NCBI GenBank assembly: GCA_009829735.1
Contig: CM020620.1
Span: 9,254,545 to 9,318,544, forward strand
Source: Pyropia yezoensis
Lineage: Eukaryota; Rhodophyta; Bangiophyceae; Bangiales; Bangiaceae
Length of the DNA stretch: 64,000 nt
Direction: 5' to 3'
Positions 30,442 through 58,267 of this stretch are shown in pieces. Made by a program: the position numbers and the translations under genes. How positions within the stretch are numbered: the stretch's first letter is position 1; each line of letters opens with the position of its first letter. The notes below the pieces were generated by a model that was not told where the DNA came from, ran no database searches, and was given only the letters and a program-made list of their open reading frames with translations.

Positions 30442-32385
30442 ATGGCGACTCCGGGAGTGGAGACGGACTCTCTCGATGAGCGTATGGAGGACACCTCCTA
30501 CGGTGCAGCGCCTGCCGGGACTTCCGGCGGGGGCTCCGCGATCGCTCCGGGGGATGGGACTCCCGCGTCACCCGGCTTTGGGTTGACGGCGGGATCTCCC
30601 CCGGAGGCGGGACAAGTTGTCCCGCGTGAGGCCTTGGGGCGGTGGTTTTACCCCGCTTGGCGTCTATATGAGGAGGGGTTGACTGTTCTTCGCTGTGGCC
30701 GACTTGGCGCAGCGATGGGTCGGGTATGGGACCGCCTACGGGAGAAGTATTCCCGTAGGGTCGGGTTCCCTGCCGGCTTCAGGACGGACCAGTTTGCCTT
30801 CCTGGACGACCAGGAGGTCGAGGACGTACAGCGGGCCAAGGCCATGGTGGACCGCGGGGGAACTATCCCGGGTCCCGGCGATTTGCCGACCTTTACTTGG
30901 GACGCGGTGGCAACTCGCCCCCCGTACCTTCACGAGGCCGATCCGCACACTCATCACTTTGATGTGCGGATGGAGAAGGACTTCCGGCGAGGTCCCTACT
31001 TGGTGACCTCGGCTCAACTTGAGTTTCCTCAGCAGTCTGCTGCCAGTAAGGAGCAGTACTATCCGAAGAAGCCCGAGTGGTGGCCTCAAGTTGAGGTCCT
31101 CTACGGGTTCCCGGCGTTGCTGCCTCGGTTGCTGGAACACTTCGGCTCCGTCATGTTGACGGCTGGCCCTGATCACCTGGTGTGGGCCATGTTGGCCACC
31201 CAGTGGCTCCTTGAGGTCATGTCGACCTGGGTCTCTTGTGTTCAGCGGCGGGGGATGCTCTGGCATCTCCCCCTCCGGCTTATCCAAGGTTTGGAACAGC
31301 TCACCCCTCAGCTAGTTGCTGAGGGGTGCTCATCAGGACAACTCACTCTACTTGAGGAGATGCTCCGCCTCCACAAGTTTATCGAGTGGGAGAGCATTGA
31401 GCACAAGTTGCGCCGCCCCACTCGTGGGCCCAAGGACGATGGCGCACTTCGCCAGTTCGTATGGGTCGCTCGTGAACTTCACGACGGCCGTGTGGTCCTA
31501 CGAGAGGGGTTGGGCATCGGGGACTACCCGTATGCCCCGGGGGTGGATCGCCACACTGCGCCACCCCCGGACAAGCCCATAGTTATGGCCGTGCCCTCAT
31601 ACGATGACCACATGACTCAACCTACTGCGGGGGCCCCAAGTCGGGGTCGCAGTTACACCCGGGTCCCGCCACCTCGGCGGGTCCCTCCGCTTCCTCCTGT
31701 CCCCTTCCAACCGCACGGGGACATCCCGATTAGCGTGGCCATTGAGTCGACCACCCCGGTGTCCCCCAACTTGGGGGCCACCCTCTTGACGGTATACCCC
31801 AAGTTGGTGTTACCGCCCACGCCTCTAACCTCAGAGATGATGATCACCACGCTGGTGCGCACCATTTCCTGGTTGGCCGCGTCGACCGCAACCCTCCAAA
31901 CTTCCGAGACTCCTCAACTTGAGGAGCGCGTTCGTACTGCAGTGGCGACCGCGAGTTGCGAGTCGGTGGCGGAGTTTATGACGGCCGAGTTGGCTCGCAT
32001 TGGGGCTATTATGCCCCAGCCAGCCCCACTTGGGCGTGGCAAGCGTCGTGCGAGCCGGGCATACTCGCCTCCTCGCCGTCGTCGCCGTCACTCGCGGCGC
32101 TCTCCCTCCGTATCCGAAGACGAGTTGTCTTACTCCGTCTCGGAGTCCTCGACTCCGTCTGAGTCGGAGTCGGTCCGGCGTCTGCGTCGCAAACTTGCGC
32201 GCAAGACCAAGCAGAAGAGTAGCCACGGTCGGCGCCACTTGCGCGACCGTGAGGGGCGCGACGGTTCCGACTTGGAGCCGCCGCCCCCTCCAACGAGTGG
32301 AGACCGTTATCGGCGTGGGTCTCGCCGCTCGCCTCTGCGTGAGGGCGAGGGCCGTGGAGTTGGAGAGTCTAGCATGCATGCCTAG
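30442..32385 (+). CDS. Antisense ORF protein of family 1 gypsy element, novel
   Basis: 647 codons on the strand opposite gag-pol, between the 3' LTR and the pol stop. Residues 1-60 are Gly/Pro-rich (MATPGVETDSLDERMEDTSYG). Residues 60-330 are well mixed and Trp/Tyr/Leu-rich, as in a folded domain. They include LVTSAQLEF, then YPKKPEWWPQVEVLYGF near residue 209, and a long amphipathic Leu-rich helix region with MLWHLPLRLI. Residues 370-430 are Pro-rich. The C terminus (about 535-630) is rich in Arg-Ser and acidic-Ser pairs (RRRRRHSRRSPSVSEDE), like SR proteins or nucleic-acid binders. The core is shared with the antisense ORFs at 41424-43199 and 56150-58267. No signal peptide or membrane segment is visible. 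I do not recognise the family. Confidence 0.8.
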   Translation: MATPGVETDSLDERMEDTSYGAAPAGTSGGGSAIAPGDGTPASPGFGLTAGSPPEAGQVVPREALGRWFYPAWRLYEEGLTVLRCGRLGAAMGRVWDRLREKYSRRVGFPAGFRTDQFAFLDDQEVEDVQRAKAMVDRGGTIPGPGDLPTFTWDAVATRPPYLHEADPHTHHFDVRMEKDFRRGPYLVTSAQLEFPQQSAASKEQYYPKKPEWWPQVEVLYGFPALLPRLLEHFGSVMLTAGPDHLVWAMLATQWLLEVMSTWVSCVQRRGMLWHLPLRLIQGLEQLTPQLVAEGCSSGQLTLLEEMLRLHKFIEWESIEHKLRRPTRGPKDDGALRQFVWVARELHDGRVVLREGLGIGDYPYAPGVDRHTAPPPDKPIVMAVPSYDDHMTQPTAGAPSRGRSYTRVPPPRRVPPLPPVPFQPHGDIPISVAIESTTPVSPNLGATLLTVYPKLVLPPTPLTSEMMITTLVRTISWLAASTATLQTSETPQLEERVRTAVATASCESVAEFMTAELARIGAIMPQPAPLGRGKRRASRAYSPPRRRRRHSRRSPSVSEDELSYSVSESSTPSESESVRRLRRKLARKTKQKSSHGRRHLRDREGRDGSDLEPPPPPTSGDRYRRGSRRSPLREGEGRGVGESSMHA

Positions 32386-32496
32386 TTGGCAGCTGCCCTT
32401 GTTGTGAGAGTGTGAGGGTTAGGGCTGTAGTTAAAAGCCACTCTGCGTACCACTTCGACTTGAAGCACTCTCTTGGCACTGTTGCTCGGCCTTCCC

Positions 32497-35400
32497 TCAC
32501 GTTGAGGGAGGGCTGTTAGGGTCTATCTCATTCCGGGCACAGTATGCCCGGACCTTCTCAGCGGGAAGGTCCTCCACATACTCCCACGTATCATCCTTGG
32601 CTTTGTAGCCAAACCAACGCACCCTCAACATGAGGCGGTCAGTGTCCTCATCCCATCCGTGGTCGATGAACTTATCGAACACGTACTCCTGCGGGCCCTG
32701 TTTGGCCGCAGGCAGTGAGGGGAGGCGCCACGCTTTCAAAGCACGCGCCCAAGCTGGGTCGCCTGCAGGCGGTGGTGCAACTTTGACCACGTCCTGTCCG
32801 TTCACTGTGCGGACCCCATCGTCACTTTCGATGGTGAAGCGCCGCCCATCAGTACGAAGGACCTGGTACGGCCCCTTCGTCTGGAACACCAACTTACCCC
32901 CAGTTGGGGTGTGTGAGTGGACCAATACCCAGTCACCCTGCTCGGGGACATGCTTGGCGTTGCGCACCTTTTTGTCAAAGGTACGCTTGTAGCGCTTTTG
33001 TGCTTTGTCCATCTCAGCCCTGACTTTAGGGATGAGGTTTTCAAGCCTAGCAGCGAACTCCGCCTTACTCTCAGTAGGAGTAGGCGTCCTGCCACCATCC
33101 TCCCTAGTTGGGAGCGGCCGCCGCACGGCAATAGACCGCACGCGACGGGGGGTCACAAAAGCGAGGGGTACTTCCCCGGTAGATGAGTGAACCTGCGAAT
33201 TGTAGGCAGTGGTCAGAATAGACATGTATTGGTCCCACGTCTTCACGTGCTCACTCACATAGTGGCGCAGCTGCCTAACAATAGTTTTGTTGAAGCGCTC
33301 CACCTGCCCATTAGTTTGTGGGTGGTAGGGGGTGGCATAGTTTGCCTTAACCCCCAACATATCCAGCACTCCCTGAAACAGTACAGACGCAAATTGCGGT
33401 CCATTGTCCGATAGTGTACTATCCGGAATGCCATACGCGGCAACCCAGTGATCTAGGAAGGCTGACACGACCGACATGGCCGTGATCTCTGCCAGTGGGA
33501 TCGCTCGCGTAAGTTTCGTGAAGCGGTCACAGATGACCAGGAGGTACTGGTTGCCCTCCTCGGTCACTGGCAGTGGCCCAAGGATGTCCATCGCCAACGC
33601 GGCGAAGGGCTCCTTGGCCGGGAACAATAGCATAGCCGTAGTAGGCCGCCGTTCCATCAGACGGTTCTGTGCACAACTTGTGCAGGCAGCCACCCAACTG
33701 TAGATGTCCACCACCATGGACGGCCAGTAGTACCTGGTCCTCAGGGTCTGGTACAGTTTACTAGACCCCAGGTGTCCACCCGTGGGAGCGTTGTGCTCCC
33801 TCTCAAGGATACTGTCCTTGAGGGATGCGGGGACGACAAGTTGTTCGGTCCCCTGGAATACCCCCCTCCTCAGGAGGAGGCCATCATCTCCCAGAAAGAA
33901 TCGCGTCTCCGCCACTGTATCCAGTGTATCCCTCTGCGACTTGCAGAAGGGATCCTCGGCCTGGGCCTTCACCACCTCGTCCAGGGACAGGGGCAAGTAC
34001 TTCTTGTTCCCTGGCGCCTCGGGGTTCAACGCTTGACCCGAGCGTGTGACTACCCCCACGATGGGGATGTCCTCATCGACTGGGGTGGTGTCCAGTCCCT
34101 CGGTAGGTACCCGAGAGAGGCCGTCGGCAAGGGCATGTTGCCTGCCAGGTCGGTACTCAATATCAAAGTTGAAGGGTGCAAGTCGCACCCTCCACCGGTT
34201 GAGACGAGTGTTCGTACAGTCCGTCTTGAAGATGAACTGCAACGCGCGGTGGTCACAGCGGATGATAAACTTCTCACCCTCTAGGTAGTGACGAAGTGAC
34301 GTCACCGCCCACACCACTGCGAGTCCTTCCAACTCGGTGACTCCGTAGTTCTTCTCGGCCGAGTTTAGCCCCTTGCTGAAGTATCCCACCGGCAAGTACT
34401 CCTTGTCCGGCTGCTGCTGAAGCAACACACAACCAAGTTGGTCGTAGCTAGCGTCCACATCCAGGATGTAGTGGCCTCCCAACCTGGGAATAGCCAGGAT
34501 AGGGGGCTTCAGCAGAAGGTCCCGAAGAGTCTCAAAGGATTCCTGCTCCACCCGACTTGGGGGAGGCAGGTTCTTCGGTAGCGTTGAGCTCACTAACTCA
34601 TTCAACGGCTTCGCCACCTTGGCGAAGCCCTTGGTGAAACGTCGGTACACGTTACACATCCCGAGGAAGCTCCTCATCTGGGTCTGGGTCCGGGGGTACT
34701 GAGCCTTACGGATGGCCCTCAAGTTTTTCTCGTTGACACTGAGACACCCCGGACGGACAACATGTCCCAAGTATTCCACCTCTTGAGTGAAGAGGTGGCA
34801 CTTACTCGCCTTCAGTGACACACCGGCGTCAGCAAGTAGCTTGAACACCTGGCCAAGATGGCCAATGTGTTCTTCCGGACTTTGGGAGAACACAATGATA
34901 TCGTCTAGGTACACGAGACAGATCTGCCACCGTACTCCGGCCAGAATCATGTCCATAGCGCGCTGGAAAGTTGCCGGCGCGTTACACAGGCCAAACGGTA
35001 GACGCTTGCACTGGTAGGTACCACAGTGACAGGTAAAGGTAGTTTTATGCCTGTCCTCCAGGGCAATGGGAATTTGCCAGTACCCCGCGTTACAGTCCAG
35101 GGTAGAGAACACGTTTGCCTCCCCCAGAGAGTCCAGACAGTCGTCCATCCGAGGTAGGGGATAACTGTCCTTCACCGTGCTCTCGTTGAGCTTACGGTAG
35201 TCGATACAGAACCGGGGGGTCCCATCAACTTTGGGGACGATCACCACCGGACTCGCCCACTCGGCGTTGCTGGCCTCGATCACATCGAGGGCCTCCATGC
35301 GAGCAACTTGCTCCTTAACGAGGGCCCTTGAACGGGGTCCTCCCCTATACGGTTGTTGGCGTATAGGGGGTGCACCGGGTTTCAACTCGATCCGGTGTTG

Positions 35401-36480
35401 GGTAGCTCTCATGAGTCCCAATTGACCATCCCACAACTTGTGATATTGGTCCAAGAGGCGTTCAACTTGAATCCTCAACCTGGGTGGAACACCCTCCATG
35501 TTCACATGGGGCCGAGGAGAGGCGGCCGACTTGGCTTGATGCTTCTCCTTTCCGGACTTCGGGTCGCTACTTGCGCCCGCGTTGAGGGTGACCGCTACTA
35601 CCGGTCCCTCGTGTTGGTCGATATAGCCGAACTTGGCCCCCGACTTGAAGAACTTGGGCGACGAGCTCAGGTTCATCACCTGGATCCTCCACGGGACTCC
35701 GGCTTTGGAGTCCATTGTGCCAAGGGCAACATGCACTTGGTGCTTGCGAGCAAGACGGGGTTTAGGGTGCACCAACCCGATCCCCGCATAATCAGTTACA
35801 ACATCCACGTGCGCCACCGAGTTGGGGGGCAACGTGACTTTACGGGCTAAACGCAGGGTAGCAGTAAACCCTTCCCTCACAGAACAAACAGGCTTCGACT
35901 GTGAGACTGTCACAGAAGCCACGGACTTTCCCTTACCAAGGATGGGGATAGTCTCCCCACTCATCAACTTGACCCAGTACTCAGGGCCACAAATCAAAGG
36001 CACTTGTGTTACGACATAAGGGGTACCCAGAAGCAGGGGTACCGATATATTCTCAACTACACCATAGGTCACGTCGACCTCATGGGTCCCCAACCGAGTT
36101 GGTAGGGTCACGGCACCAACGATGGGAAGTACCCCACCATTGATATCAATCAGGTGGTCAGCTTTAGACTTCCAGCGTTGGAGCCTCATCTCCTTTGGTA
36201 ATAGCGACTTGCGTATCAAGGAGGCTCCTGACCCGGTATCAAGTACGATACGGGCACAACAGGCGCGGCCGGGGGCAAGTTGCACCCGTCCAGCCACCTG
36301 GAAGTTCTCACCCGTCAGCACCGCGATGACCCGACGTGGGTTTACGTTCTTGGGGAGTCCTACCCGAGGTGGGCGGACCCCCTTAGGTCGCCGCAGTATC
36401 CGACACGGTTGATTCGTCCTTTTGGCCCACTTGGCCGAGGCGACCGTTGTGAGCTTCGGACGACCAGCTCCAACGGTCAT
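32497..36480 (-). CDS. pol: Family 1 pol polyprotein
   Basis: 1,327 codons. Domains in order: aspartic protease with DTGSGAS at residue 81; reverse transcriptase with FCIDYRKLNE and the YLDD catalytic motif near 522; RNase H with DVDAS and TELEGLAVVWA; integrase with an HHCC-type zinc module near 900-935, the DDE residues within MDILGPLP, LSDNGPQF and NGQVERF; and a chromodomain-like C terminus (about 1265-1325; LRVRWFGYKAKDDTWEYVEDL). This is the Ty3/gypsy domain order. The chromodomain usually directs integration to marked chromatin. The pol frame is -1 relative to gag and overlaps its end, with a GGGAAAC heptamer at the junction. Pol stops 111 bases from the stop of the antisense ORF, so the two converge tail to tail. 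Confidence 0.95.
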   Translation of the reverse strand: MTVGAGRPKLTTVASAKWAKRTNQPCRILRRPKGVRPPRVGLPKNVNPRRVIAVLTGENFQVAGRVQLAPGRACCARIVLDTGSGASLIRKSLLPKEMRLQRWKSKADHLIDINGGVLPIVGAVTLPTRLGTHEVDVTYGVVENISVPLLLGTPYVVTQVPLICGPEYWVKLMSGETIPILGKGKSVASVTVSQSKPVCSVREGFTATLRLARKVTLPPNSVAHVDVVTDYAGIGLVHPKPRLARKHQVHVALGTMDSKAGVPWRIQVMNLSSSPKFFKSGAKFGYIDQHEGPVVAVTLNAGASSDPKSGKEKHQAKSAASPRPHVNMEGVPPRLRIQVERLLDQYHKLWDGQLGLMRATQHRIELKPGAPPIRQQPYRGGPRSRALVKEQVARMEALDVIEASNAEWASPVVIVPKVDGTPRFCIDYRKLNESTVKDSYPLPRMDDCLDSLGEANVFSTLDCNAGYWQIPIALEDRHKTTFTCHCGTYQCKRLPFGLCNAPATFQRAMDMILAGVRWQICLVYLDDIIVFSQSPEEHIGHLGQVFKLLADAGVSLKASKCHLFTQEVEYLGHVVRPGCLSVNEKNLRAIRKAQYPRTQTQMRSFLGMCNVYRRFTKGFAKVAKPLNELVSSTLPKNLPPPSRVEQESFETLRDLLLKPPILAIPRLGGHYILDVDASYDQLGCVLLQQQPDKEYLPVGYFSKGLNSAEKNYGVTELEGLAVVWAVTSLRHYLEGEKFIIRCDHRALQFIFKTDCTNTRLNRWRVRLAPFNFDIEYRPGRQHALADGLSRVPTEGLDTTPVDEDIPIVGVVTRSGQALNPEAPGNKKYLPLSLDEVVKAQAEDPFCKSQRDTLDTVAETRFFLGDDGLLLRRGVFQGTEQLVVPASLKDSILEREHNAPTGGHLGSSKLYQTLRTRYYWPSMVVDIYSWVAACTSCAQNRLMERRPTTAMLLFPAKEPFAALAMDILGPLPVTEEGNQYLLVICDRFTKLTRAIPLAEITAMSVVSAFLDHWVAAYGIPDSTLSDNGPQFASVLFQGVLDMLGVKANYATPYHPQTNGQVERFNKTIVRQLRHYVSEHVKTWDQYMSILTTAYNSQVHSSTGEVPLAFVTPRRVRSIAVRRPLPTREDGGRTPTPTESKAEFAARLENLIPKVRAEMDKAQKRYKRTFDKKVRNAKHVPEQGDWVLVHSHTPTGGKLVFQTKGPYQVLRTDGRRFTIESDDGVRTVNGQDVVKVAPPPAGDPAWARALKAWRLPSLPAAKQGPQEYVFDKFIDHGWDEDTDRLMLRVRWFGYKAKDDTWEYVEDLPAEKVRAYCARNEIDPNSPPST

Positions 36481-38423
36481 TCGTTTCCCGCCGACTTGGC
36501 GTCCGAATCTGAGGGCGAAGGGGAAGACGACGAGTCCGAGGACGACGTGTCCGCCCCCTCCGCCGAGGGTGTGGCGACCGCCACTACCGGTCGAGACCCA
36601 CCCTCGCGGCGTGAACGTACTTCGTTCGTAGCCGACTTCTTACTCGCATTCCTAACAAGTTGTTGGATGCGTTTACTCAACTTGGGGCAATCATATGCCC
36701 AGTGTCCATCGGAGTTGCAGTTCCAACACCGATGGTCAGCTCCCGGAGGGGTCTTCCCAACTGGGGAAGACGAAGAGATACCTTGGGAAGTTCCCACGGC
36801 AGCTACCACCCTCTCCTTGCGGATTCGGCGCGCCTCTCTCAACTCTCTGGCCTGGCGCGCCTCCTCCCGTTCCTTGGCCAACTCGGCCTGACGCTCCTGG
36901 CGTTGTTCCTCCCGCAACTTGCGGTAGGCCTCGCCTCTGCGGTAGGCGAACCTAGCCAACTCGGCCAGGGTCGCCCGGGCAGTGTTATGCTCCCGGGTCT
37001 CCATCCGGACTGACCAATGGAGTCCCTCCACAAACCGACTCTTCACCACAGCTTGTGGATGAAGAAACCCACAAAGATTGTTGAGCTTACGAACACGCTC
37101 CGCAAAGGACAACTCGTCCTCCGCCTCTTCCTGATGGGCTTGCGTGAACTCCTCGACTTGGGAAGCCAACGCCGCTTCATCAACCATGGCCCTCAACAAC
37201 CAGTTGACGAGCTCCAAATAGGACGTCACCTCCCCAGCGCCTCCACTTGAGGAGCTGGGCATGACGGACATAAGTTCTGTCCGCAGGTCTCCCTTCGTAA
37301 ACTCCTGTAGCATGTAAAAAGCCATGCCTTCACTTATGGCATTGTCGTCACAGGCTTTTGTGAAACGACGTAGGAACTCAAAGACACGGAGGGGGGGAGT
37401 TCCATCCCACTCCGCTTTGTGCCCAAAAGAGTGAAGTGTATTCTTTTTGGCACGGCCCATGGCTCGGGCCTGGTCAGGACCATACGCCACCGACTTGTTG
37501 TGGAGGGCGTAGGTCTCACAGTCAAAGATCCTCTGGTAGACCGGGTTGGCTACCTGGATCTTGGGCGGCACCTCACGTTGAGGGAACAGCCGCTGTGGCA
37601 CTGGGGTAAGTTCACCCTCAGTGCCTGTAGTCCGGCGCGGCGCGCTTGGTGTAGCCGCCGGTGTTGTCGGGGGGAACTCCCCCATGAAGGGCGTACGCCC
37701 CACCGAGTATGGTGTGGCTCCCTCGTTGGGAGTCACAGGGGTCGCCCCCTGTTCGGGGCGACCCGAGATAGGCGTCAGGGGGGATCCCCCCTGCGCCTGC
37801 GGGCTCGAAAGCCCCAATCCGGTCTGGACATTAAGGCCATCTGGCAAACTCGCCACAATCTGATTCAGAATAGTATTCGTCATCGTGACAACCAGGTCCG
37901 GCAAAGTCTGCCGCAACACATTGGTCGCCTCCCGACGGACAGTTTCCGCGAGGAGTGGATTGACGACTCCAGTTGAGTCTCGGTCCGCCTCCGGGAGTCC
38001 ACCTGAGGGGTAACCACGTTCCTCAGGGGTCTCAACCGGGGGCATGGGCGCAAGCCCATCGCCGACCAACGGAGGTCCGCCGTCCTCCGAAAGCCTAGTT
38101 GGCGACGGCTCCATGCCAAAGTTGGCTCCAACCCGAGTGGAACCCGCGGGGACAGTCCTCACCCCTTGGGACGTTCCCGTTGAGTATACCACGCGGTGGC
38201 CAGACTTCGGCCCACCCACATCAGAAGTGTCACCCGAGTGAACTCCCGACTGAGTCGGGGTGGCCTGTTGCCCGCCCGCACTTCCAGTCCTGCTGGCTTG
38301 AGGGACCTCCAGTCCCTCTGCGACCCCAGGTAAACCCACCTGTGTCTCACCAGTATTCAAAGGCACTGAAGTACGTGCGTCACCCGTGTACTCCCCGGAC
38401 GACGGGGGGTCCGAGCTAGCCAT
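36477..38423 (-). CDS. gag: Family 1 gag protein
   Basis: 648 codons from the ATG at 38421-38423 (MASSDPPSSG), 120 bases inside the 5' LTR. The first 230 residues are Gly/Thr/Pro-rich. A capsid-like Leu/aromatic domain follows (VFEFLRRFTKACDD, then VTSYLELVNWLLRAM and ERVRKLNNLCGFLHP). Then comes a charged coiled-coil (REEQRQERQAELAKEREEAR) and one CCHC zinc knuckle (CWNCNSDGHWAYDC, C-x2-C-x4-H-x4-C). The C terminus is acidic and Ser-rich. Gag packages the element RNA. It ends four bases into pol. Confidence 0.9.
   Translation of the reverse strand: MASSDPPSSGEYTGDARTSVPLNTGETQVGLPGVAEGLEVPQASRTGSAGGQQATPTQSGVHSGDTSDVGGPKSGHRVVYSTGTSQGVRTVPAGSTRVGANFGMEPSPTRLSEDGGPPLVGDGLAPMPPVETPEERGYPSGGLPEADRDSTGVVNPLLAETVRREATNVLRQTLPDLVVTMTNTILNQIVASLPDGLNVQTGLGLSSPQAQGGSPLTPISGRPEQGATPVTPNEGATPYSVGRTPFMGEFPPTTPAATPSAPRRTTGTEGELTPVPQRLFPQREVPPKIQVANPVYQRIFDCETYALHNKSVAYGPDQARAMGRAKKNTLHSFGHKAEWDGTPPLRVFEFLRRFTKACDDNAISEGMAFYMLQEFTKGDLRTELMSVMPSSSSGGAGEVTSYLELVNWLLRAMVDEAALASQVEEFTQAHQEEAEDELSFAERVRKLNNLCGFLHPQAVVKSRFVEGLHWSVRMETREHNTARATLAELARFAYRRGEAYRKLREEQRQERQAELAKEREEARQARELREARRIRKERVVAAVGTSQGISSSSPVGKTPPGADHRCWNCNSDGHWAYDCPKLSKRIQQLVRNASKKSATNEVRSRREGGSRPVVAVATPSAEGADTSSSDSSSSPSPSDSDAKSAGNE
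36483..36489 (-). other. -1 frameshift heptamer GGGAAAC at gag end
   Basis: In the gag frame the bases read G-GGA-AAC-GAA-TGA, the X-XXY-YYZ pattern of ribosomal -1 frameshift sites, one codon before the gag stop. The -1 frame is that of pol. Family 3 has the same heptamer in the same place. Confidence 0.7.
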
Positions 38424-38522
38424 GTTGGCTAACGATCCGTATGACACGGTCCAAGTCCACCGTTCCTCTGAGACAGAGGGCCCCCTACACCCGGGTGCAC
38501 CCGGAGGTAAAGTTTACCTCTG

Positions 38523-38540
38523 TCCCCTGCTGCTCCACCA
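38523..38540 (-). other. Primer-binding site, family 1
   Basis: On the element strand TGGTGGAGCAGCAGGGGA starts 2 bases inside the 5' LTR. It is complementary to a tRNA 3' end of the form TCCCCTGCTGCTCCACCA, giving an acceptor stem GGAGCAG. The tRNA is not identified. Family 2 has the same 18 bases. Confidence 0.75.
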
Positions 38541-38542
38541 AA

Positions 38543-39011
38543 TGTGGCAAAAACCACTCGCACACACGGCACCCAAGTTGGGGCGGTGTGCAAGGGCTGC
38601 CTCCCGTGTCGGGGGAACCGGAAGAAGTGCAAGTCGCACACACTCTGTCCCTGTTGTGGGGCAAACCCCCCACCAACAAACAAGAAGATGGTGTGTGGTC
38701 CAACAGTTTCTTGGTCGGGACGGGGACGCAGGGCCAAGCCCCGCTGTCCCTCCCCTTATCCCCCCAGGGTCCACTCAGAATCTCGCCACTCAGAATCTCC
38801 CACCCCAGCACCTGCCCACCGGGCCACACGAAAATTCAAGACGATAAATGCAGAAAACCCTCAAATCCAAGTTGGATTTACTACTAAGCTAACTATCCCA
38901 AACTTAGGGAATATGGACCCAAATGCAGGGGGAGGAACGGATCAGGCTAGTGGCCTGCCGCCCCTTGCATGGCACGTGTTGCCCCCCTACCTGGGGGTCA
39001 ATACTGCCACA
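38543..39011 (-). repeat. Family 1 5' LTR (469 bp)
   Basis: Pairs with 29632-30100 with one base difference seen. Its outer end abuts TCCATGG, the start codon region of the SAP-like ORF. Its plus-strand open frame runs in phase into that ORF. Confidence 0.92.
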
Positions 39012-39014
39012 TCC

Positions 39015-39389
39015 ATGGCGTCGCGTATGAACGTCGAGACCCTGCGCATGTTGCTGAGCGAACGAGGACATCCCACTGATGGCTTCAAGCCCGCCCTGGT
39101 GGAACGTCGCCGAGCAAATGGCGTGGCCCTACGGGCCCACAGCGACCGCGCGGCCCAAGCCGGTGCGGGGGCCTCGGTGACGGCTGCCGCATTGCATGTT
39201 GACTTGAGGGGAAGGAGAAGCAAGCACCCCACGTCTACCGTACATGGTGGCAGCTGCAGAGATGACATGCGCCGCAGCGGCAGTCTGCCAGACAGGGGGA
39301 TACATGGCGGCTTGTCTGCCGCAAAGCAGACGAGCAGCCTTTGTCGAAGAATGGCAGTGCTTCTAAGTGACACCCTATTTCGACGCTAA
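39015..39389 (+). CDS. SAP-like domain ORF, N-terminal piece of a host gene?
   Basis: 124 codons starting at the ATG at 39015, whose context with the left flank restored is CACCATGG. Residues 5-38 (MNVETLRMLLSERGHP then FKPALVERRRANG) resemble a SAP motif: two short helices around a Gly/Pro turn, with a conserved L-x-x-L-L and a K/R-x-x-L-V-E-R end. SAP motifs bind AT-rich DNA in chromatin and RNA-processing proteins. The rest is Ala- and Ser-rich without domain. The family 1 element sits directly on its start codon, so normal expression is probably lost or replaced by the LTR. The short length suggests an exon or a truncated gene. Confidence 0.45.
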   Translation: MASRMNVETLRMLLSERGHPTDGFKPALVERRRANGVALRAHSDRAAQAGAGASVTAAALHVDLRGRRSKHPTSTVHGGSCRDDMRRSGSLPDRGIHGGLSAAKQTSSLCRRMAVLLSDTLFRR

Positions 39390-40206: not shown

Positions 40207-40852
40207 TGTAACGTAATGGAACCCAGTTTCCCGGAACCACAAACCACAACCGCACACACAGAGACCACAGTCCGAAGCCCAGAAAGGAACAGGTAAGAGC
40301 CCTTGCTGATCCACTCGCCCGCCACGATACGAGGCAAAGGTAAACAGGACAAAAGCCCGAGGGAGAAGGAACCCAAAGCACTATTGATTTTGCAAGATGG
40401 CCCCGGGGAGAAACCCGGAGCACCCCTCAAGAACCTCCCCCCCTGGCCCCTCCATGGGCCCTGAGCGAGGCCCCCAGAGGGTGCCCCCAGCGGGCCAAGT
40501 GCCAGCAAGGCACCAGCCGCTCACCGGGCCAACACACAAAAAGCAAGCGAAATCCCCCCACACACCAATGTCAATCCCCCAAAAAAACCCAGTGGGAAAA
40601 AGGGGAAAGACACGAAATCACGCAAGGAAAAGAAATGCGAAAAATCAAGCAAATAACCCGAAGGTCAGTATGCCCCCAACCGGGCAAGTCCTCCGCTCCG
40701 GGGGGACCAATCAGGGCACCGGGCGTGTCGCCACTGCCCCGGGCCACCGATGCAGGGATCCCAAGCCAGCGCGTGATTCCACGTAACGCTGCCAGCCTGG
40801 TCCCAAGTCAGCCTCCCGGGTCCCAACAGTACCTGAGGGCCACAACGCCACA
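40207..40852 (-). repeat. Family 2 3' LTR (646 bp)
   Basis: Begins TGTAACGTAAT and ends ACGCCACA. Matches 44114-44759 over its whole length. Confidence 0.93.
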
Positions 40853-41423
40853 TGGCCCCCTCACTAGGGCCGAGCGTCCCGCCGGCCAACAGGGAAACCG
40901 GGGAGACGGACTGGAAAGGGTCCGACAGGGTTACACCAGGGTCACAACGAACGGGACGTGGGGCCAGTGTCTGCAAACAGGGTCCCCCCCGACAAGTGTC
41001 TCGAGGCGGAGGGTCCCGGGCAGACTGACCAGGGCGGTACGGGAGAGGCGAGGGCCACGCACAAGGTAACGAGGGGGGTGTGGGGCAGCCCGCGCCGGCC
41101 GCCCGCGTGCATTCCTCCTCCCCTCGCCCTATCCATGTGGCGCTCGGCCCCTGGGGTGGGTGAGGAGGCGTAGAGATGCGGACGGGGGCTGGCGGCACAC
41201 GGGCGCAGCCTGGGTTCCGTTTGAGTTGGGGCCCAGGGATAAGAGGGCCCTCACGGGCTGCCTCGTTCCCCGCGACCGGGACTCCAACGTACCATCTTCC
41301 CCGCTACGCTTCCCCGTGGGCTCCTCAATCGTTACCTCTACCCGTTCCCCTTTCCCAACGTTCCCACGCACCCGTTACCCTGGTACTCTACCTCCCCACA
41401 CCGTGTCCCGTGACCCCGTCGCC

Positions 41424-43199
41424 ATGGAGCCCGGCCGCGCCGCGACGAGCGCGTCGGCTGGTAAGGGCTCGACGGTTCCTCGCGGTCCCAGCGTGCCTGT
41501 GGTTATGGCGGTACCTGGGGCCCAAGACGGTCCCCGCGGTCAAGGTGCAGCGGGTCAAGGGGTTCCTGGCGGTCAAGGCGTACCGGTCGCGGGGTCAGGC
41601 GGTAACAACATGGAACAAGAGGAACGTGGTGCGGGTCAAGCGTACGTGACGGTTCATGGCATGGTACCCGAAGACTTTGGTCCCGAGACGGTCACCGCTT
41701 GGCGCCGGGAAGAGGCCCGCGGTTGGGTCACCGGTACCCTGGCTCATAAGGTCCTTCGGGTCGTGGACGGGTCCTGTCCCGGGAACGCGTTCCGGAAGCA
41801 GATGACCGCTATAGTCCAAGCTCGGATCCCTGTCAAGGCTGATCGGTCCTAGTCGATTACGGTGGTCCGGCACGCGGGAGAAGTCGGGTACGTGGAGCGG
41901 TTCAAGAGTATCCGGGACGAGGTTACCAAGGGGACCCTGCCTGCGGCCCCGGGTCCCGACTACATCGTGCTTCCATCTCCCTACTTGGACCCTACTTCCT
42001 TCAAGCCGTCCCATGGGGACCTGGTGATCAGTCGGCTCCATCGGGACAAGAACGGGATCCTTGTCGGCTGGCACCAGCAAGAGTTCCCGAGTTGCCCGGC
42101 TACCCTCCGTGGGCTCCACTACCTCCGGGTACCCCACTGGTTTAGTCACGTCGAGGTTCCTTTTGGGGCCCTGGAGGAACTACCCCCGGTCCAGTGCTAC
42201 TTCGGGGACCTCCTTCGTGCTTCGGACCCCTTTGCCTGGTTCGTGTTCCGGACCGAGTGGGCCACGAACTGTGCCCTTTATACCCTGGAGCGGGCCTGTG
42301 GTTCCGGTGAGATGTGCCTTCTTCCTCGTCTCCTTCGGACCTGGATCGACCGTGTCGGGGTCCCCGATATCTGCAAGGGTTCCGGTGGCGTGGACGAGCG
42401 AGCGGCGCGGGACCTCAAGGCACTCATGGTTCTTAGTGACCGGGTGGTCCGGGCCCCTGGGCTCCGTACAGGTTTGGGTCACGCGGCTTCCAACCGCAAG
42501 GACCGTGCTTCCTATATCCTGGTACGGTTCGAGACCCGGAACGGGACCTGGGCGGCGCTCGTGGACGAGGACCTGGCTCCCTTGGACCTACCTTACTCGA
42601 CGGACATCTTGGACGCGCGGGAGTTTGACGGGCCCAAGGACGGGAACGTGGGTCAGTCGGACGAGATTGTGCCCGGGAGTGGGTCCGGTGGTCCTGGTGC
42701 CCCCGGTGCCCCTGGTGCCCGGTCGTCGGGCTCCCTTGTTCAACGTGACCCTGCGCTGGGAAGCCGTACCGTCTACGTGGCCAACTTGTTGGCCCATGGC
42801 GAGGTACCTGATGAGGAACTTCGGGACCTTGAGGGCAACCTGGCTATCTCGACAGTTCTGGGGCTCCGTAGTTTCTTTGGCGGGTCCGCGGACGTCTTGG
42901 CCCATGCTCACGTGGGGCCCTTGCTCTCGGCTTCCCTCCATACTACGGTCAACATTGGGTCCCGTGTAGCCGAATGGACCCGGGTCCAGGCGGGTTCCTC
43001 GACGCCGGACTACAAGGGCCTGTTGGCGATCTTGGACCGTAATGTTATCCGTGGGGACCTGGGGTCAGAGTTGGCCACGGCCGAGGAGGAGGCCCGTAAG
43101 AGTTGGCACGGGGTCCGTGAGGGTTCCAGGGTCCGAGGTCGGGACGATATAGACCAAGACACTGACCCTCGTGCCGAGAGCCGGGCCCGTTACCTGTGA
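41424..43199 (+). CDS. Antisense ORF of family 2 element
   Basis: Starts at the ATG at 41424 (MEPGRAATSASAG), about 570 bases inside the 3' LTR, and spans about 590 codons with about one break. After a Gly/Val/Pro-rich N terminus, the core has GWHQQEF, then YLRVPHWFSHVEVPFGA, and a Leu/Trp-rich region ending CLLPRLLRTWI. Its order and spacing are those of the antisense ORFs of families 1 and 3. The C-terminal part (LGLRSFFGGSADVLAHAHVG) is of ordinary composition and the end is charged. It occupies nearly all of the internal region, so it is the main coding content of this pol-less element. Confidence 0.75.
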
Positions 43200-43489
43200 G
43201 TCACACAGAGGGGAGGGACCCGAGGGACCATGGATCGTTCTTGCATGTGATGTTGATCCAAGTAGTCATAAAGTCTCTTTGTTTGTCAGCTCCCTTGGGA
43301 CCCCTTCTTCAATGTTGACCAGAGGGACCTCCTTCCGACTTAGCCGCATAATTGGTTCAAAGGGACCCATACCAGCCCAGACGGGAAAATGGGGAACTAA
43401 AGGGAGGGAACGGGGGGGGTTCATATCCAAGGGGAAAGAAGTAAATCACCATTCAAAAAAACCATTATCAATAAAACCCCTCCCGTGGA

Positions 43490-43972
43490 TTAGATGTTTT
43501 CCCAACCTACCCAGGTTGAACCCCTGACCTCCTTGTTGATCCCTCCCGTACAGTAACCACTGGAATGGTGACGACGCCGACGACGGCGGGAACGGGAACG
43601 ATTGGAACGACTAGTATCATGGGACCCACCCTGGCCAGCAGGACTCTGGCTCAGGGCCTGGGATACAGTAGCCAAAATCTCATCTCGAAACGTTTCCAGA
43701 GTAGTAACGTTGTCTTGGGACCCAGCAACAGGAGCCAAAGGTGGAACTCGGGTCCCTGTCTCAGAACCCGTATCCCGACGTAAATCCTGACCCACAGTAG
43801 CCCGAATCCCACCCGGGGGCTCTGTCCCCCGACGCGGGATCCCTGTCTGCCCGCCTCCGCCACGGCCCAACGGACCCGAGGGACCGCCACGGCCGCGACT
43901 AGCGGGAGTAACCATAGAAACGTCCGACGGCGCACCACGGCCCGAACCTCCCGAGGGAACAGGGTCTGTCAT
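43490..43972 (-). CDS. Short gag-like start of family 2 element
   Basis: About 160 codons from the ATG at 43970-43972 (MTDPVPSGGSGRGAP), 142 bases from the 5' LTR, the same place as gag in family 1. It is Gly/Pro-rich, then has a predicted helix (TLETFRDEILATVSQALSQ) and an Arg-Ser block (SNRSRSRRRRRRHHSS). A similar block lies in family 3 gag (NRSSRRRRRRRRRSS). The capsid and zinc-knuckle parts of family 1 gag are not present in the element. Confidence 0.6.
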   Translation of the reverse strand: MTDPVPSGGSGRGAPSDVSMVTPASRGRGGPSGPLGRGGGGQTGIPRRGTEPPGGIRATVGQDLRRDTGSETGTRVPPLAPVAGSQDNVTTLETFRDEILATVSQALSQSPAGQGGSHDTSRSNRSRSRRRRRRHHSSGYCTGGINKEVRGSTWVGWENI

Positions 43973-44091
43973 GTTGGCCGTGCGGTACTCGACCTGAACC
44001 AAACGATCTCGTTACCAGAAACAGGAACCAAGGAACGAAACGCTACTGAGAAAGGAAAGGGCTGTCCCGATACGGGAAAGAAGAAAAGCCC

Positions 44092-44109
44092 TCCCCTGCT
44101 GCTCCACCA
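44092..44109 (-). other. Primer-binding site, family 2
   Basis: TGGTGGAGCAGCAGGGGA on the element strand, 4 bases inside the 5' LTR and identical to the 18-base site of family 1. Confidence 0.75.
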
Positions 44110-44113
44110 TAAC

Positions 44114-44759
44114 TGTAGCGTAATTGAACCCAGGTTCCCGGAACCACAAACCACAACCACAAACACAGAGACCACAGTCCGAAGCCCAGAAAGGAACAGG
44201 TAAGAGCCCTTGCTGATCCACTCGCCCGCCACGATACGAGGCAAAGGTAAACAGGACAAAAGCCCGAGGGAGAAGGAACCCAAAGCACTATTGATTTTGC
44301 AAGATGGCCCCGGGGAGAAACCCGGAGCACCCCTCAAGAACCTCCCCCCCTGGCCCCTCCATGGGCCCTGAGCGAGGCCCCCAGAGGGTGCCCCCAGCGG
44401 GCCAAGTGCCAGCAAGGCACCAGCCGCTCACCGGGCCAACACACAAAAAGCAAGCGAAATCCCCCCACACACCAATGTCAATCCCCCAAAAAAACCCAGT
44501 GGGAAAAAGGGGAAAGACACGAAATCACGCAAGGAAAAGAAATGCGAAAAATCAAGCAAATAACCCGAAGGTCAGTATGCCCCCAACCGGGCAAGTCCTC
44601 CGCTCCGGGGGGACCAATCAGGGCACCGGGCGTGTCGCCACTGCCCCGGGCCACCGATGCAGGGATCCCAAGCCAGCGCGTGGTTCCACGTAACGCTGCC
44701 AGCCGGGTCCCAAGTCAGCCTCCCGGGTCCCAACGGTACCTGAGGGCCACGACGCCACA
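44114..44759 (-). repeat. Family 2 5' LTR (646 bp)
   Basis: Begins TGTAGCGTAAT and ends ACGCCACA. Partner of 40207-40852. Confidence 0.93.
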
Positions 44760-44764
44760 CGCCG

Positions 44765-54410: not shown

Positions 54411-54436
54411 GGGGGGGGGGGGGGGGGGGGGGGGGG
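54411..54436. repeat. G26 homopolymer
   Basis: 26 consecutive G. It blocks any safe reading-frame link between the DNA to its left and the Cys-rich frame to its right. Confidence 0.9.
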
Positions 54437-55392
54437 CGGCCGCCACCGGGAGGCGGGCCGCCCCCACGGAAGATAAGCAAGGACCAGCGGCGTCGCGGCT
54501 GTCGGCGGCTTTGTGCACGTTGTCGGCGTGCCCAAATCACGGGGCCCGAGTTTGCTTTGTGCCACTGGACGTGCGGCTGCCCGTGGGCGGCTCGGCCTCC
54601 GCCAGGAGAGCCAGTGAACCGGTGGTGGGGGTGCGTGACGGAGCCGACGAGAACGCAACGGCGCCGAGGCTTTCGGCGGCTGTGCTGGCAGTGTCGCCTG
54701 GCGGTCCGCGCGGGGCCACAGCACGGTCTGTGCCGCTGGACCTGCCGCTGTCCTTGGGCAGCACAGCCGCAGCCGCAGAACCTGGACTGGGAGCGGCCGC
54801 CAAGCCCACGTCGGTGGACGGAGCCGCCGCGTTGCGGTGGCCCGGCCGGGGCGGCCGGCTACGCCGGACACGACCAGCGGCCGCCGAGCCCGCGTGGGTG
54901 GGCGGGGCCGAGCCGGGGCAACGACCAAGCCAAGCGGCGGCCGCTGAGCCCGCCTGGGTGGGGGGGGCCAAGCGGGGGCAACGACCAACCCCAGCCGCGG
55001 CCGCCGAGCCCGCGCGTGCGGGCGGGGCCGAGCCGGGGCAACGACCAAGCCCAGCGGCGGCCGCTATGCCCGCGCGGGTGGGGGCGGGGGCCAAGCGGGG
55101 GCAACGACCAAGTCCAGCCGCGGCCGCCGAGCCCGCGTGGGTGGGCGGGGCCAAGCGGGGGCAACGACCAAGTCCAGCCGCGGCCGCCGAGCCCGCGCGG
55201 GTGGGCGGGGCCGAGCCGGGGCAACGACCGAGCCCAGCGGCGGCAGCTGAGCCCGCGCGGGTGGGGGGGGCCAAGCGGGGGCAACGACCAAGTCCAGGCG
55301 CGGCCGCCGAGCCCGCGTGGGTGGGCGAGGCCAAGCGGGGGCAACGACCAAGTCCAGCCGCGGCCGCCGAGCCCGCGTGGGTGGGGGGGGCC
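54437..55392 (+). CDS. Fragment with two Cys-rich modules and 20-residue repeats
   Basis: A plus-strand frame whose start is not fixed because of the G26 run. It encodes two copies of a Cys module about 58 residues apart: RRRGCRRLCARC...CHWTCGCPWAA and RRRGFRRLCWQC...CRWTCRCPWAA. The spacing C-x2-C-x11-12-C-x3-C-x-C-P suggests metal binding or disulfides. A Pro/Arg linker and about eight 20-residue repeats of the form RPPSPRGWAGPSGGNDQ follow, encoded by the 60-bp minisatellite. The frame ends where the family 3 LTR begins, so the gene's 3' end was displaced by that insertion. The module is not a family I know. Other frames are also open across the minisatellite, so the repeat part alone proves nothing. 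Confidence 0.4.
54868..55392. repeat. 60-bp minisatellite, about 8.7 units
   Basis: GCAACGACC recurs at 54918, 54978, 55038, 55101, 55161, 55221, 55281 and 55341, a period of 60 with one 63-base unit. Each unit carries GCGGCCGC and GGGTGGGCGGGGCC. The array stops abruptly within a unit at 55392, where the family 3 LTR begins. Confidence 0.92.
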
Positions 55393-55964
55393 TGTGGTAT
55401 AAAACTCGATCCTCTCAGACACGTGTCAATATCCCTCGGGGGAAGGGGACAGGTAACATAGAAAGGGGAACTACGAGAATGGTATGCCTGTTGCCTCACG
55501 TGCCTGCTCGCAGGGCAAACAGATACGCACGGTAGTGCACACGGGGAAGAGGAAAGCAAACGCGCAGTTGTCTTTTTCCCTGAGGGCGCAGGCCAAGGGC
55601 GCCTCGCTGTCCCTCTTAACGTGCATCTGGGGGAGCCTCGGCACGTTGGCCAGGTGGCCCCCCCACAACCCCGAGTGGCCCCGACCCGAGTCTAACCTCG
55701 TCAGGTCGGGGGCCACTATCACTACTAATTCTATTTCCACTCACTAAACTCACACTCAAATTCTCTCAAATCAAGTCCCTCACAAGTATGCAAAAACTCA
55801 TCAGAAATCCCTCTCTCACGTGTGGATAGCGTAGTCCACCGCATCCCAGTGCCGGGCACGGGCCACGGCCGCCAACCATCAGCACACGGCGGGCGTGTAC
55901 TGGCACCTGGTGCCCTCTGGTTGCAGTCCCGGGTCGGCGCCAAGTCGGGGCCAGGGATGCTACA
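55393..55964 (-). repeat. Putative 3' LTR of family 3 (572 bp)
   Basis: The left edge is fixed by the sudden end of the minisatellite and begins TGTGGTATAAAAC. The right edge is proposed at GATGCTACA, where a purine tract on the element strand (AGGGAGGGAGC, 55967-55977) follows, as a polypurine tract should. The ends TGTGGTA and TGCTACA are a partial inverted repeat. The partner LTR lies outside the window. Confidence 0.5.
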
Positions 55965-56149
55965 TAGCTCCCTCCCTAGTCCGGCACGTCCTCGGGCCGA
56001 ACCAGGTGCCACCGTGCACAGCCTCGAGCACGTCCACACCGGTGCCGAGGTCGAGCGTCTTCACCCCGGTTACGACCACCTGCTCCGATTCTGCCCCCCC
56101 CCCTTCCTCCTTCACCTTGGCCCTCTCGTTCCCCCGGAGTCTGGACGTC

Positions 56150-58267
56150 ATGTCCAGTTCCGAGATCCAAGCTGGGCCCGTGGTTCCGGCGGCGAGTGTT
56201 GCGGAGGAGAACTCGGGTAGTCGCGCCCCTCTCCTGCCTCCGGTTCCTCGGGTGTCCGTGTCGGCGCCGGTTGCCACGGCGGGGACGGATCGGGCTCCCC
56301 CGGCTTCCGCGATGCACCCGGTCGAGACCCCCCCGGTGGGTCTCCCGGAGATGCTTCTTGGACAGGATCCTCTGGCGGCCCGGCGTTACTCCACGGTGGT
56401 CGGCAACGCCGGCGCGGCTCAGTGCCAGCAGGATTGCCTGGACCTCTGGCGCAAGGAACTCCAGCGCGGGGTCTTGACCGAGATGGACAAGGCTCGTCTT
56501 CATACGGCGGACCAGATGCGCCTGGCACAAGACCGCTCCCAGAGCTTCTCGGGTTCCTCTTGGGTTGCTCGGCTGGAGGATCTCCCCTTCGCGCTGGTGC
56601 TGGATCTACCCTTGACCGAGCGTCGCGTGTCCGCGTCCGTTCTCCCGTGGCCAGAGGAGGAAGGGTACGCCCACCGGGCACTCAAGGTCTGGGACGAGGC
56701 GCTCAAGGGGTGGGGGAGCCTGAACTGCGATCCCCGTCCGAGTATGGTCGCTCTGGAGCCGCCCTTCCTGACCCGGAAATACTCCAAGTTGTCGCCTGCA
56801 CGGGAGCAGGGTGAGCGACGCGGGCGTCAGCGTGACTTCCTCGTGAGCTGCAACCACCAGGAGTTCTGGAAGCTGGACAAGGCTAACCGGGCGGCCTACT
56901 ACCCCAAGGTCATCCCGCAGCAGCAGGAAGTCGAGATCCCGGTCGGGTTTGCTCCTTCCAGCATCCCCTTCACCTGGTACTTCTTGGACGCCTTGACTCA
57001 GGCGTCGATCAAGGGCTTCTTCCACTCGATCCCGTACATGATGTACACGTCCGAGATGACAGTCTTGGCGGCCAACCACTGGCTTCACGAGGTCTTGGTG
57101 TCCAACCGGCTTTGGTTTCTCCCCGACCTCCTGATGGTCTGGATTGTCGACAAGTTGACCGTCGACTTCCTGTGCAGCCAGGACGAGGAGTACAAGGGGC
57201 TCTTCCAGGCGATGATTGACTTCCGGCGTCTGGTGCCGGTGCATGACCGGAACTTCTTGAAAGCGATTGCCGACCAGAACCGCCCGCGTCGGGATGGCTC
57301 CGGTTGGGCGCAGGTGGTCTACCAGTCTTCTCCGGCCAAGGTGCAGCTCGCGACACCGCTTCCGGCGTGGCCGCAGCTAGGCAGCTTTCCTGCTCCGGTC
57401 GCCCTCGATCTTCTGCCAGCTGGGCCATCGGTGCAAGAGTCGGGATGGGCCGCGGCGGTCGGTCAGGCGTCTGCGGCGGCTCCGCTTCCTCCTGTTGCCC
57501 CTGTCGCCCCGGTGGCCTCGTCTGAACCGTCGCCGGCGCGTTCGCGCCCTGTTCCGGCTGTGCCGGTACTTCAAGCTCCTCCGGCACCGCGCTTGTCCGC
57601 AGCGAGTCTGGGGGTGGCCGTGCGGTCGCCGACTACTCCGGCTGCTCTGCCTCGGACGCCTTCTTCCAACGCCGGCGGCGCTGTGCCTCCGCTGGAGTTG
57701 GGTACTCCGGTTTCTGGGGCCGTTGTGGACCGTCCGGTAGTGTCATCCTCGGGGCGGTTCGAGAATCCGGCGCCGACCCTGCGCCTTACCCGCTTCCGGG
57801 TGCCTGACTGGTACCTGAACCAAGGTGGTCCGACATGCGACCAGTACGACGTCGGTGTGATTGAAGACCAGCTGGGTCGTCTTCCGGTGCAGGTTGAAGG
57901 CGTTGGGTCCTCCCTGGTGCTGGGCACTTACGCCAGCGTCTTGAACGACGTGGTCGACCGGGTGTTTGCTGGCGCGGACAGCGGCCAGATGTCGAACAGC
58001 CCGGTGGTTGGCGAACTTCTGGCGACTTTGACGAGGCATGGCTTGGCCCAGCGGTGGTCAGAGACCTTCACTGGCTTCCAGGGGCGCCGACGGGCATATC
58101 TGGATGAGCGGGAGCCCCCGGCAACTACCGGTACTACTCCGATGGCGTCATACCGGGATGCACCGCGTCCACCGCACTACGTCATCCCGTCTTCCTCCGG
58201 ATCCCGTCGTGCCGCGGAGGCAGCGCTGGAGGACACTCCCGCGGCTCAGCGTCCGCGCCGGGAGTAG
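56150..58267 (+). CDS. Antisense ORF protein of family 3 gypsy element, novel
   Basis: 705 codons from the ATG at 56150 (MSSSEIQAGPVVPAASVAEE), opposite to gag-pol. The frame is open further upstream into the LTR. After a Pro/Val-rich N terminus, a well-mixed region of about 450 residues follows. It contains DFLVSCNHQEF, YYPKVIPQQQEVEIPVGF near residue 250 and a Leu-rich stretch with LWFLPDLLMVWI, in the same order as in families 1 and 2. A Pro/Ala/Val-rich linker leads to a second folded-looking part (GGPTCDQYDVGVIEDQLGRL, then LNDVVDRVFAGADSG and HGLAQRWSETFTGFQGRRR). The C terminus is charged (AQRPRRE). There is no signal peptide, membrane segment or known motif. The stop is 146 bases from the pol stop; the genes converge. 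Confidence 0.8.
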   Translation: MSSSEIQAGPVVPAASVAEENSGSRAPLLPPVPRVSVSAPVATAGTDRAPPASAMHPVETPPVGLPEMLLGQDPLAARRYSTVVGNAGAAQCQQDCLDLWRKELQRGVLTEMDKARLHTADQMRLAQDRSQSFSGSSWVARLEDLPFALVLDLPLTERRVSASVLPWPEEEGYAHRALKVWDEALKGWGSLNCDPRPSMVALEPPFLTRKYSKLSPAREQGERRGRQRDFLVSCNHQEFWKLDKANRAAYYPKVIPQQQEVEIPVGFAPSSIPFTWYFLDALTQASIKGFFHSIPYMMYTSEMTVLAANHWLHEVLVSNRLWFLPDLLMVWIVDKLTVDFLCSQDEEYKGLFQAMIDFRRLVPVHDRNFLKAIADQNRPRRDGSGWAQVVYQSSPAKVQLATPLPAWPQLGSFPAPVALDLLPAGPSVQESGWAAAVGQASAAAPLPPVAPVAPVASSEPSPARSRPVPAVPVLQAPPAPRLSAASLGVAVRSPTTPAALPRTPSSNAGGAVPPLELGTPVSGAVVDRPVVSSSGRFENPAPTLRLTRFRVPDWYLNQGGPTCDQYDVGVIEDQLGRLPVQVEGVGSSLVLGTYASVLNDVVDRVFAGADSGQMSNSPVVGELLATLTRHGLAQRWSETFTGFQGRRRAYLDEREPPATTGTTPMASYRDAPRPPHYVIPSSSGSRRAAEAALEDTPAAQRPRRE

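What the first reader, a model, noticed from the sequence alone, without database searches (positions are those of the whole stretch)
30442..58267. A conserved antisense protein in three gypsy families
Seen directly: three distinct gypsy elements (29632-39011, 40207-44759, 55393-64000) each carry a long ORF on the strand opposite gag/pol, in the same slot between pol and the 3' LTR. The proteins share an ordered core. First comes a segment LVTSAQLEF / GWHQQEF / LVSCNHQEF. Then YPKKPEWWPQVEVLYGF / YLRVPHWFSHVEVPFGA / YYPKVIPQQQEVEIPVGF. Then, after 50-60 residues, LWHLPLRLI / CLLPRLLRTWI / LWFLPDLLMVWI. Known: extra ORFs, some antisense, occur before the 3' LTR of plant Tat/Ogre-type gypsy elements, with unknown function. 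Inference: this is a maintained element gene with its own promoter, possibly a regulator, chaperone or host-interaction factor, in a lineage where I know of no report.
Basis: partly seen in the sequence, partly recalled or inferred. Interest (0 to 1): 0.9.

Follow-up and report, generated by a model that had tools for sequence, protein, structure and literature searches.

The report
Backward gene in seaweed retrotransposons
Jumping elements in the nori seaweed genome carry an extra gene written backwards behind their usual genes; natural selection has kept it as a working protein of unknown job, much as in some flowering-plant elements but with a protein not recognisably related to theirs.

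Summary
Confirmed and extended. The host is the red alga Pyropia yezoensis (scaffold sizes match). Its Ty3/gypsy elements carry a long gene antisense to gag-pol, between pol and the 3' LTR. It is coding: pN/pS is 0.18 (family 1) and 0.19 (family 3) from the first shared ATG, 0.92 and 1.12 upstream in the same frame, 0.20 for family-1 pol. Family-2 subfamilies give dN/dS 0.225. The families share a core, and a fourth family exists. Their RTs group together; the one chromovirus examined outside lacks a comparable ORF. The protein changes about four times faster than pol at similar dS. No Pfam family passes its cut-off, and PF04195 (TRP28) finds nothing. The layout is a known class, aORF-3R (Grande, Retand, Boty); the protein family looks new, and my searches listed no red-algal report. 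Most likely it is a nuclear accessory or regulatory protein made from an antisense transcript; transcript, promoter and role are untested. The window's family-2 copy is a one-off deletion derivative with a broken gene.

The parts
29632..30100 (-). 3' LTR of the family-1 element (469 bp), followed on + by a pyrimidine run (a polypurine tract on the element strand)
30101..30441 (+). leader of the antisense gene, no sign of coding (pN/pS 0.92); 6 of 6 other copies have an in-frame stop 234 or 243 bp upstream of the ATG position
30442..32385 (+). family-1 antisense gene, 647 aa from the first shared ATG; pN/pS 0.18 overall, 0.55 over the first 106 codons, 0.12 in the core 30760-31500, so the true start may lie a little further in
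32497..36639 (-). family-1 pol ORF (RT, RNase H, integrase; weak protease and chromodomain matches), convergent with the antisense gene
36477..38513 (-). family-1 gag ORF with zinc knuckle
38543..39011 (-). 5' LTR of the family-1 element
17341..19284 (+). identical family-1 antisense gene in the duplicated element (start placed by the 13,101-base offset; stop-to-stop ORF 16939-19284)
40207..44759 (-). family-2 deletion derivative: LTRs 40207-40852 and 44114-44759 (98.6% identical), junction near 43547, pol lost, gag mostly lost
41424..43199 (+). family-2 antisense gene of this copy, interrupted by an in-frame stop at 41850-41852; open from 41853 to 43199
56150..58267 (+). family-3 antisense gene, 705 aa from an ATG shared by 10 of 10 other copies; pN/pS 0.19 overall, 0.77 for 56150-56311 and 0.20 or less from 56312 up to 57394, so the start may be the ATG at 56312
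58414..62550 (-). family-3 pol, read as two abutting ORFs (58414-59718 and 59719-62550)

Best explanation
It is an old accessory gene of one group of red-algal Ty3/gypsy elements, lying tail-to-tail with pol and with its head towards the 3' LTR. SHOWN: a protein-coding frame selected as strongly as pol in family 1, present in four families, diverging in step with pol at synonymous sites but about four times faster in amino acids. INFERRED: an antisense mRNA starts in or just inside the 3' LTR and is translated into a protein of roughly 530-900 residues with a mostly helical core and low-complexity tails (family-4 start not determined); the protein acts in the nucleus as a regulatory or accessory factor of the element's own cycle (transcription, RNA handling, or nuclear entry and integration) and meets fast-changing partners. 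By position it works like Grande GENE23 or the HTLV antisense gene; no homology to either is shown.
For: Selection in three families. In family 3 the ATG at 56150 is kept in 10 of 10 other copies; in family 1 the ATG at 30442 in 7 of 8 loci (two are the window's own copies; L004 has GTG). Position in 28 of 29 family-2 loci. Four families whose RTs are 58-66% identical between families and group apart from the single outgroup, a chromovirus at 35-38% with no comparable ORF. Family 2, one copy of A vs one of B: dS 1.17 (antisense), 0.94 (RT-RNase H), 0.83 (integrase part in L034), 0.55 (gag); dN 0.288, 0.064, 0.073, 0.071. The first 50 bases inside the 3' LTR are 96% identical between A and B and the next 100 are 80-82%, against 65-76% for the following 350. 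Family-1 C-terminus is rich in K/R and S (34 K+R and 22 S of 132), compatible with a nuclear protein. Published analogues: Grande's is nuclear, Retand's is predicted to bind DNA (PMC7264820, PMC11963269).
Against: No transcript, promoter, localisation or binding evidence was obtainable. Both structure models are weak (mean pLDDT 35.6 and 52.8) and no fold was recognised. The basic serine-rich tail is in family 1 only; a simple basic-cluster scan found one further site, in family 2B, and none in families 3, 4 and the four other family-2 members scanned. LTRs of A and B are 93.5% identical although the protein differs by about a third, which speaks mildly against a factor that tracks LTR sequence. 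The N-terminal part is weakly constrained.
Confidence: 0.5

Rival explanations
1. Integration or nuclear-import accessory: the protein helps the integrase-bearing preintegration complex rather than transcription.
For: Gene sits beside the integrase end of pol and has similar synonymous divergence.
Against: Neighbourhood is forced by the layout; integrase protein is conserved while this one changes fast; no binding data.
Confidence: 0.22
2. Env-like, cell-exit or host-defence-facing protein that happens to be encoded backwards.
For: Fast amino-acid change under overall constraint: dN/dS about 0.25 against about 0.07-0.13 for pol and gag; it occupies the slot of env.
Against: Antisense, whereas env-like ORFs are sense (PMC7264820); no signal peptide or membrane span seen by eye (no predictor was run); no Pfam family above its cut-off.
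Confidence: 0.12
3. The antisense RNA is the functional product (dsRNA or transcriptional interference) and the ORF is incidental.
For: Antisense non-coding transcripts occur in other LTR elements (PMC7264820).
Against: Codon-level selection in three families. An RNA role in addition is not excluded.
Confidence: 0.06
4. Shadow ORF or GC-rich chance ORF.
For: The window has many long mechanical ORFs (171 of at least 150 aa, stop to stop).
Against: pN/pS is 0.10-0.23 over most of the frame and 0.87-1.12 upstream; the other five frames carry stops; similarity between families exceeds controls.
Confidence: 0.01
5. A captured host gene of cellular function.
For: Transduction of host sequences by LTR elements is known (PMC7264820).
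Against: A profile search gave 5 hits among 8000 scored candidates, none with a precomputed Pfam domain; the gene is in four old families beside pol. Not excluded, since coverage of eukaryotes in that collection is probably thin.
Confidence: 0.05

Closest known systems
aORF-3R of plant Ty3/gypsy elements: maize Grande GENE23, rice RIRE2, Silene Retand ORF4, bean PvRetro13 (PMC7264820, parts 1 and 2 of 3 read)
   Different: Red-algal elements; no match to Pfam TRP28; antisense transcription and nuclear localisation are reported for Grande and unknown here
Retand TRP28 antisense protein, PF04195 (PMC11963269, passages incl. abstract, and discussion section)
   Same: Slot and orientation; predicted DNA binder there
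   Different: PF04195 gave no candidate in the whole genome and no match in 9 family members, both at E up to 10
Boty of Botrytis cinerea (named in PMC7264820; its own paper not seen)
   Same: aORF-3R outside plants
   Different: Fungal; protein not compared here
HTLV antisense gene HBZ (as described in PMC11963269 and PMC7264820)
   Same: Antisense gene of a retroelement; antisense promoter in the 3' LTR there
   Different: Retrovirus; promoter untested here; no bZIP match

Membership tests
aORF-3R class of LTR retrotransposons | ORF antisense to gag-pol, between pol and 3' LTR | tested here: met
   families 1 and 3 in the window, family 2 in 28 of 29 loci, family 4 beside pol in L051; the LTR side was checked for families 1 and 2 only
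aORF-3R class of LTR retrotransposons | present in most copies and conserved like other element proteins | tested here: met
   pN/pS 0.18 vs 0.20 for pol in family 1; 76 of 79 scored family-4 places have no stop in the 548-aa piece searched. Scored copies are the best-matching ones, so the share is biased upward
aORF-3R class of LTR retrotransposons | transcribed antisense from its own promoter (reported for Grande) | not testable with these tools
   no RNA data
Retand / TRP28 (PF04195) | TRP28 domain in the antisense protein | tested here: not met
   (no positive control with known TRP28 was run); a relation too remote for sequence profiles is not excluded
Chromoviruses (as a label for the host elements) | C-terminal chromodomain in pol | tested here: inconclusive
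   Pfam Chromo at E 0.001 and 0.00023 but below the curated cut-off in families 1 and 3; the outgroup element passes it (54.5 bits)
Env-like additional ORF | sense orientation with gag-pol | tested here: not met
HTLV HBZ-like | bZIP domain (feature recalled, from no call) | tested here: not met
   no bZIP family among matches of 9 members

The most novel reading that the evidence does not exclude
Antisense accessory genes at the 3' end of Ty3/gypsy elements arose or were kept independently in flowering plants, a fungus and red algae because these elements share a general need for a separately transcribed nuclear factor; or, bolder still, the algal protein and TRP28 are remote relatives and the gene is as old as the split of red and green plants.
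Probability: 0.15. Interest if true: 0.85.

Novelty: new variant of a known kind. Interest (0 to 1): 0.6.

Why it matters
The function of aORF-3R proteins is an open question (PMC7264820). A second protein family with no detectable relation to TRP28 in the same slot, in another phylum, under selection as strong as pol and still in very recent copies (79 scored family-4 places about 99% identical), argues that the slot itself matters. LTR elements predominate among the repeats that make up 48% of this genome (PMC7423979), so antisense transcripts and the protein should be easy to look for.

Tried and rejected

Mosaic reading dropped: after I thought family-2 gag and LTR had been exchanged between subfamilies A and B. 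Piecewise dS is 0.55 for gag, with 0.73-0.91 in codons 101-400 and 0.19 and 0.40 at the two ends, so the genes largely share an age; the LTR and the ends of gag are more alike.

Sharp start codon dropped: pN/pS over the first 106 codons of family 1 is 0.55, and 0.77 for 56150-56311 in family 3, so I no longer say that selection begins exactly at the first ATG. Non-autonomous family reading dropped: the window's family-2 junction is unique among 40 scored places. Phage records: no match. IMG/VR: the alignment query could not be used.

Weak points: fam3-fam4 are not linked directly (hhalign 2.2), only through families 1 and 2; family 4 is one sequence there; reversed and shuffled controls were not run for fam1-fam4. 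Selection tests used few copies, drawn from the best matches: 14 and 13 (L023-L025, partial or degraded, left out), 5 and 5, 7 and 11 (codons with gaps skipped), one against one. The RT tree has six sequences and one outgroup, family 4 by a partial RT. Pfam hits at chance level were seen: DUF2483 E 0.28, DUF6214 E 0.052 and DACNK E 0.27, one member each. P0011 is at most 57% identical to any scored place in this genome, which suggests another species, but its organism is unknown.

Literature: 10 searches in open-licence PMC; apart from the papers named in this report I saw only the listings, which were cut, and no listed paper reported an antisense gene in red-algal LTR elements. Seen as passages: PMC5408684 (bdelloid extra ORFs), PMC3594237, PMC7423979, PMC12477816 (an opposite-strand accessory gene in a DNA transposon of Ectocarpus, not this).
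Full report
Where it is. The window is C3:9254545-9318544 of a 107.5-Mb assembly whose three contigs seen here are 43.6, 34.3 and 29.4 Mb. The Pyropia yezoensis assembly has three scaffolds of 29.4, 34.3 and 43.6 Mb, and 48% of it is predicted repeats, mostly LTR elements (PMC7423979, passages). I take the host to be this red alga.

The observation. All three ORFs exist. Family 1 has LTRs 29632-30100 and 38543-39011 (1 difference in 469), a pyrimidine run inside the left LTR boundary, and gag and pol on the - strand. So the left LTR is the 3' LTR, and the + strand gene reads from it towards the end of pol; the two ORFs end 111 bases apart. Family 3 has the same order of genes, but its LTRs could not be checked because the element leaves the window. 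Family 2 in the window is a deletion derivative without pol, with a junction found whole only there among 40 scored places and a broken antisense frame. Its relatives show the full layout: in 28 of 29 loci (L010-L038) a pol C-terminus follows on the opposite strand, and in the remaining one (L027) another element is nested there.

Is it a gene? Family 2: 14 copies of subfamily A against 13 of B gave dS 1.135 and dN 0.256 (ratio 0.225). The other five frames gave ratios of 0.36 to 2.17 with 2 to 19 stops per copy; in the gene's own frame 21 of 30 copies have no stop in the compared part. Families 1 and 3 over the whole stop-to-stop frame gave pN/pS 0.26 (7 copies) and 0.24 (11 copies). From the first shared ATG on they give 0.18 and 0.19, while the same frame upstream gives 0.92 and 1.12, and family-1 pol C-terminus gives 0.20. 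Variable columns by codon position are 30, 21, 82 in family 1 and 56, 43, 123 in family 3. Along the gene the ratio is 0.55 over the first 106 codons of family 1, then 0.12 and 0.16; in family 3 it is 0.77 for 56150-56311, then 0.20, 0.10 and 0.23. So the exact start is not fixed: the N-terminus is either weakly constrained or begins a little further in, at 56312 perhaps in family 3. The ATG at 56150 is present in 10 of 10 other family-3 copies, 7 of which are open to the end. In family 1, 7 of 8 loci have the ATG at 30442 (two of them are the window's own copies; L004 has GTG), 6 of these 7 are open to the end, and 6 of 6 other copies have an in-frame stop 234 or 243 bp upstream. One reverse frame also has a low ratio (0.32 to 0.36); it shares its third codon position with the gene and holds 10 to 30 stops per copy.

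One protein family. BLASTP and tblastn join the three. Profile-profile probabilities are 94.6, 98.3 and 29.4 for fam1-fam2, fam2-fam3 and fam1-fam3; reversed, shuffled and gag controls stay at or below 1.3. The genome search with the family-2 protein lists 97 matches from 34% to 100% identity. A fourth family, seen beside a family-2 copy (L051:805-3531, 909 aa stop to stop), is linked to family 2 at 81 and to family 1 at 79, but not to family 3 directly (2.2). A 548-aa piece of it finds 79 scored places, all about 99% identical or more, 76 without a stop. Families 1 to 4 have RTs 58-66% identical between families and group apart from the one outgroup used, a chromovirus nested in L027/L053 with RT 35-38% identical. 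Between that element's insertion point and its pol stop there are about 860 bases, which must include its LTR; the longest + strand ORF there is 196 aa, so it has no comparable gene. Whether every member of the group has the gene was not tested.

How it evolves. Between one copy of subfamily A and one of B, dS is 1.17 for the antisense gene, 0.94 for RT-RNase H, 0.83 for the integrase part and 0.55 for gag; dN is 0.288, 0.064, 0.073 and 0.071. With 5 copies each, the antisense gene and the pol C-terminus give dS 1.135 and 0.869, dN 0.248 and 0.068. The gene is thus as old in its element as pol, under constraint, and about four times faster in amino acids than pol; against gag, whose dS is lower, the dN/dS is about twice as high. 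The LTR (93.5% identical) and the first 150 bases inside it (80-96%) are conserved, as a promoter or a packaging or priming region would be; this does not tell which.

Who else has it. A profile search of the 5.8-billion-protein collection found 5 relatives among 8000 scored candidates; two narrower searches found one each, among 5648 and 8000. P0011 is at most 57% identical to any scored place in this genome, so the family probably exists in another species. P0013 is a gene model from EukProt; I guess it comes from the 2013 P. yezoensis assembly, whose models used cDNA hints (PMC3594237, passages), which would be at best a hint of expression. No Pfam family passes its cut-off, no PDB sequence matches and no fold is recognised, but the models are weak, so this does not show a new fold.

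How it most likely works. By layout this is an accessory gene with its own antisense transcript, as reported for Grande, whose protein is nuclear, and for HTLV (PMC7264820). I favour a nuclear accessory or regulatory role in the element's own cycle; I give about 0.5 to that, 0.22 to an integration or import factor, 0.12 to an Env-like or host-facing role, and small values to an RNA-only function or a captured host gene. That the gene is selected protein-coding sequence I hold at above 0.95.

Known or new. The layout class aORF-3R is known in flowering plants and a fungus (PMC7264820, PMC11963269). PF04195, the domain that marks the Retand form, gave no candidate in this genome at E up to 10 (no positive control was at hand). 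My literature searches listed no report of such a gene in red algae. I file it as a new variant of a known kind.

Noticed in passing
window 12843-39047: A 13.1-kb unit is repeated in tandem (about 12843-25946 and 25947-39047), each with a family-1 element; no LTR copy was found near 25442, where the first unit should have one.
   Followed up: partly
window 39432-45491: The family-2 copy lies beside an ORF with a DDE_1 transposase domain (44694-45491) and seems to interrupt that gene; the left part 39432-40127 has no Pfam match.
   Followed up: partly
window 54797-55450: An array of about 60-base tandem repeats (eight copies in register) directly left of the family-3 element.
   Followed up: no
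window 38529-38540 and 44098-44109: Families 1 and 2 share GCTGCTCCACCA on + next to the 5' LTR, a likely common primer-binding site; the tRNA was not identified.
   Followed up: no
window 58414-62550: Family-3 pol is split into two abutting ORFs by one in-frame stop in this copy.
   Followed up: no
L027 from 2943, and L053: A chromovirus with a clear chromodomain is nested in a family-2B element and has no comparable antisense ORF.
   Followed up: yes
L065, L066: LTR and both ends of gag are more alike between subfamilies A and B than the rest of the genes, from cis constraint or exchange.
   Followed up: partly
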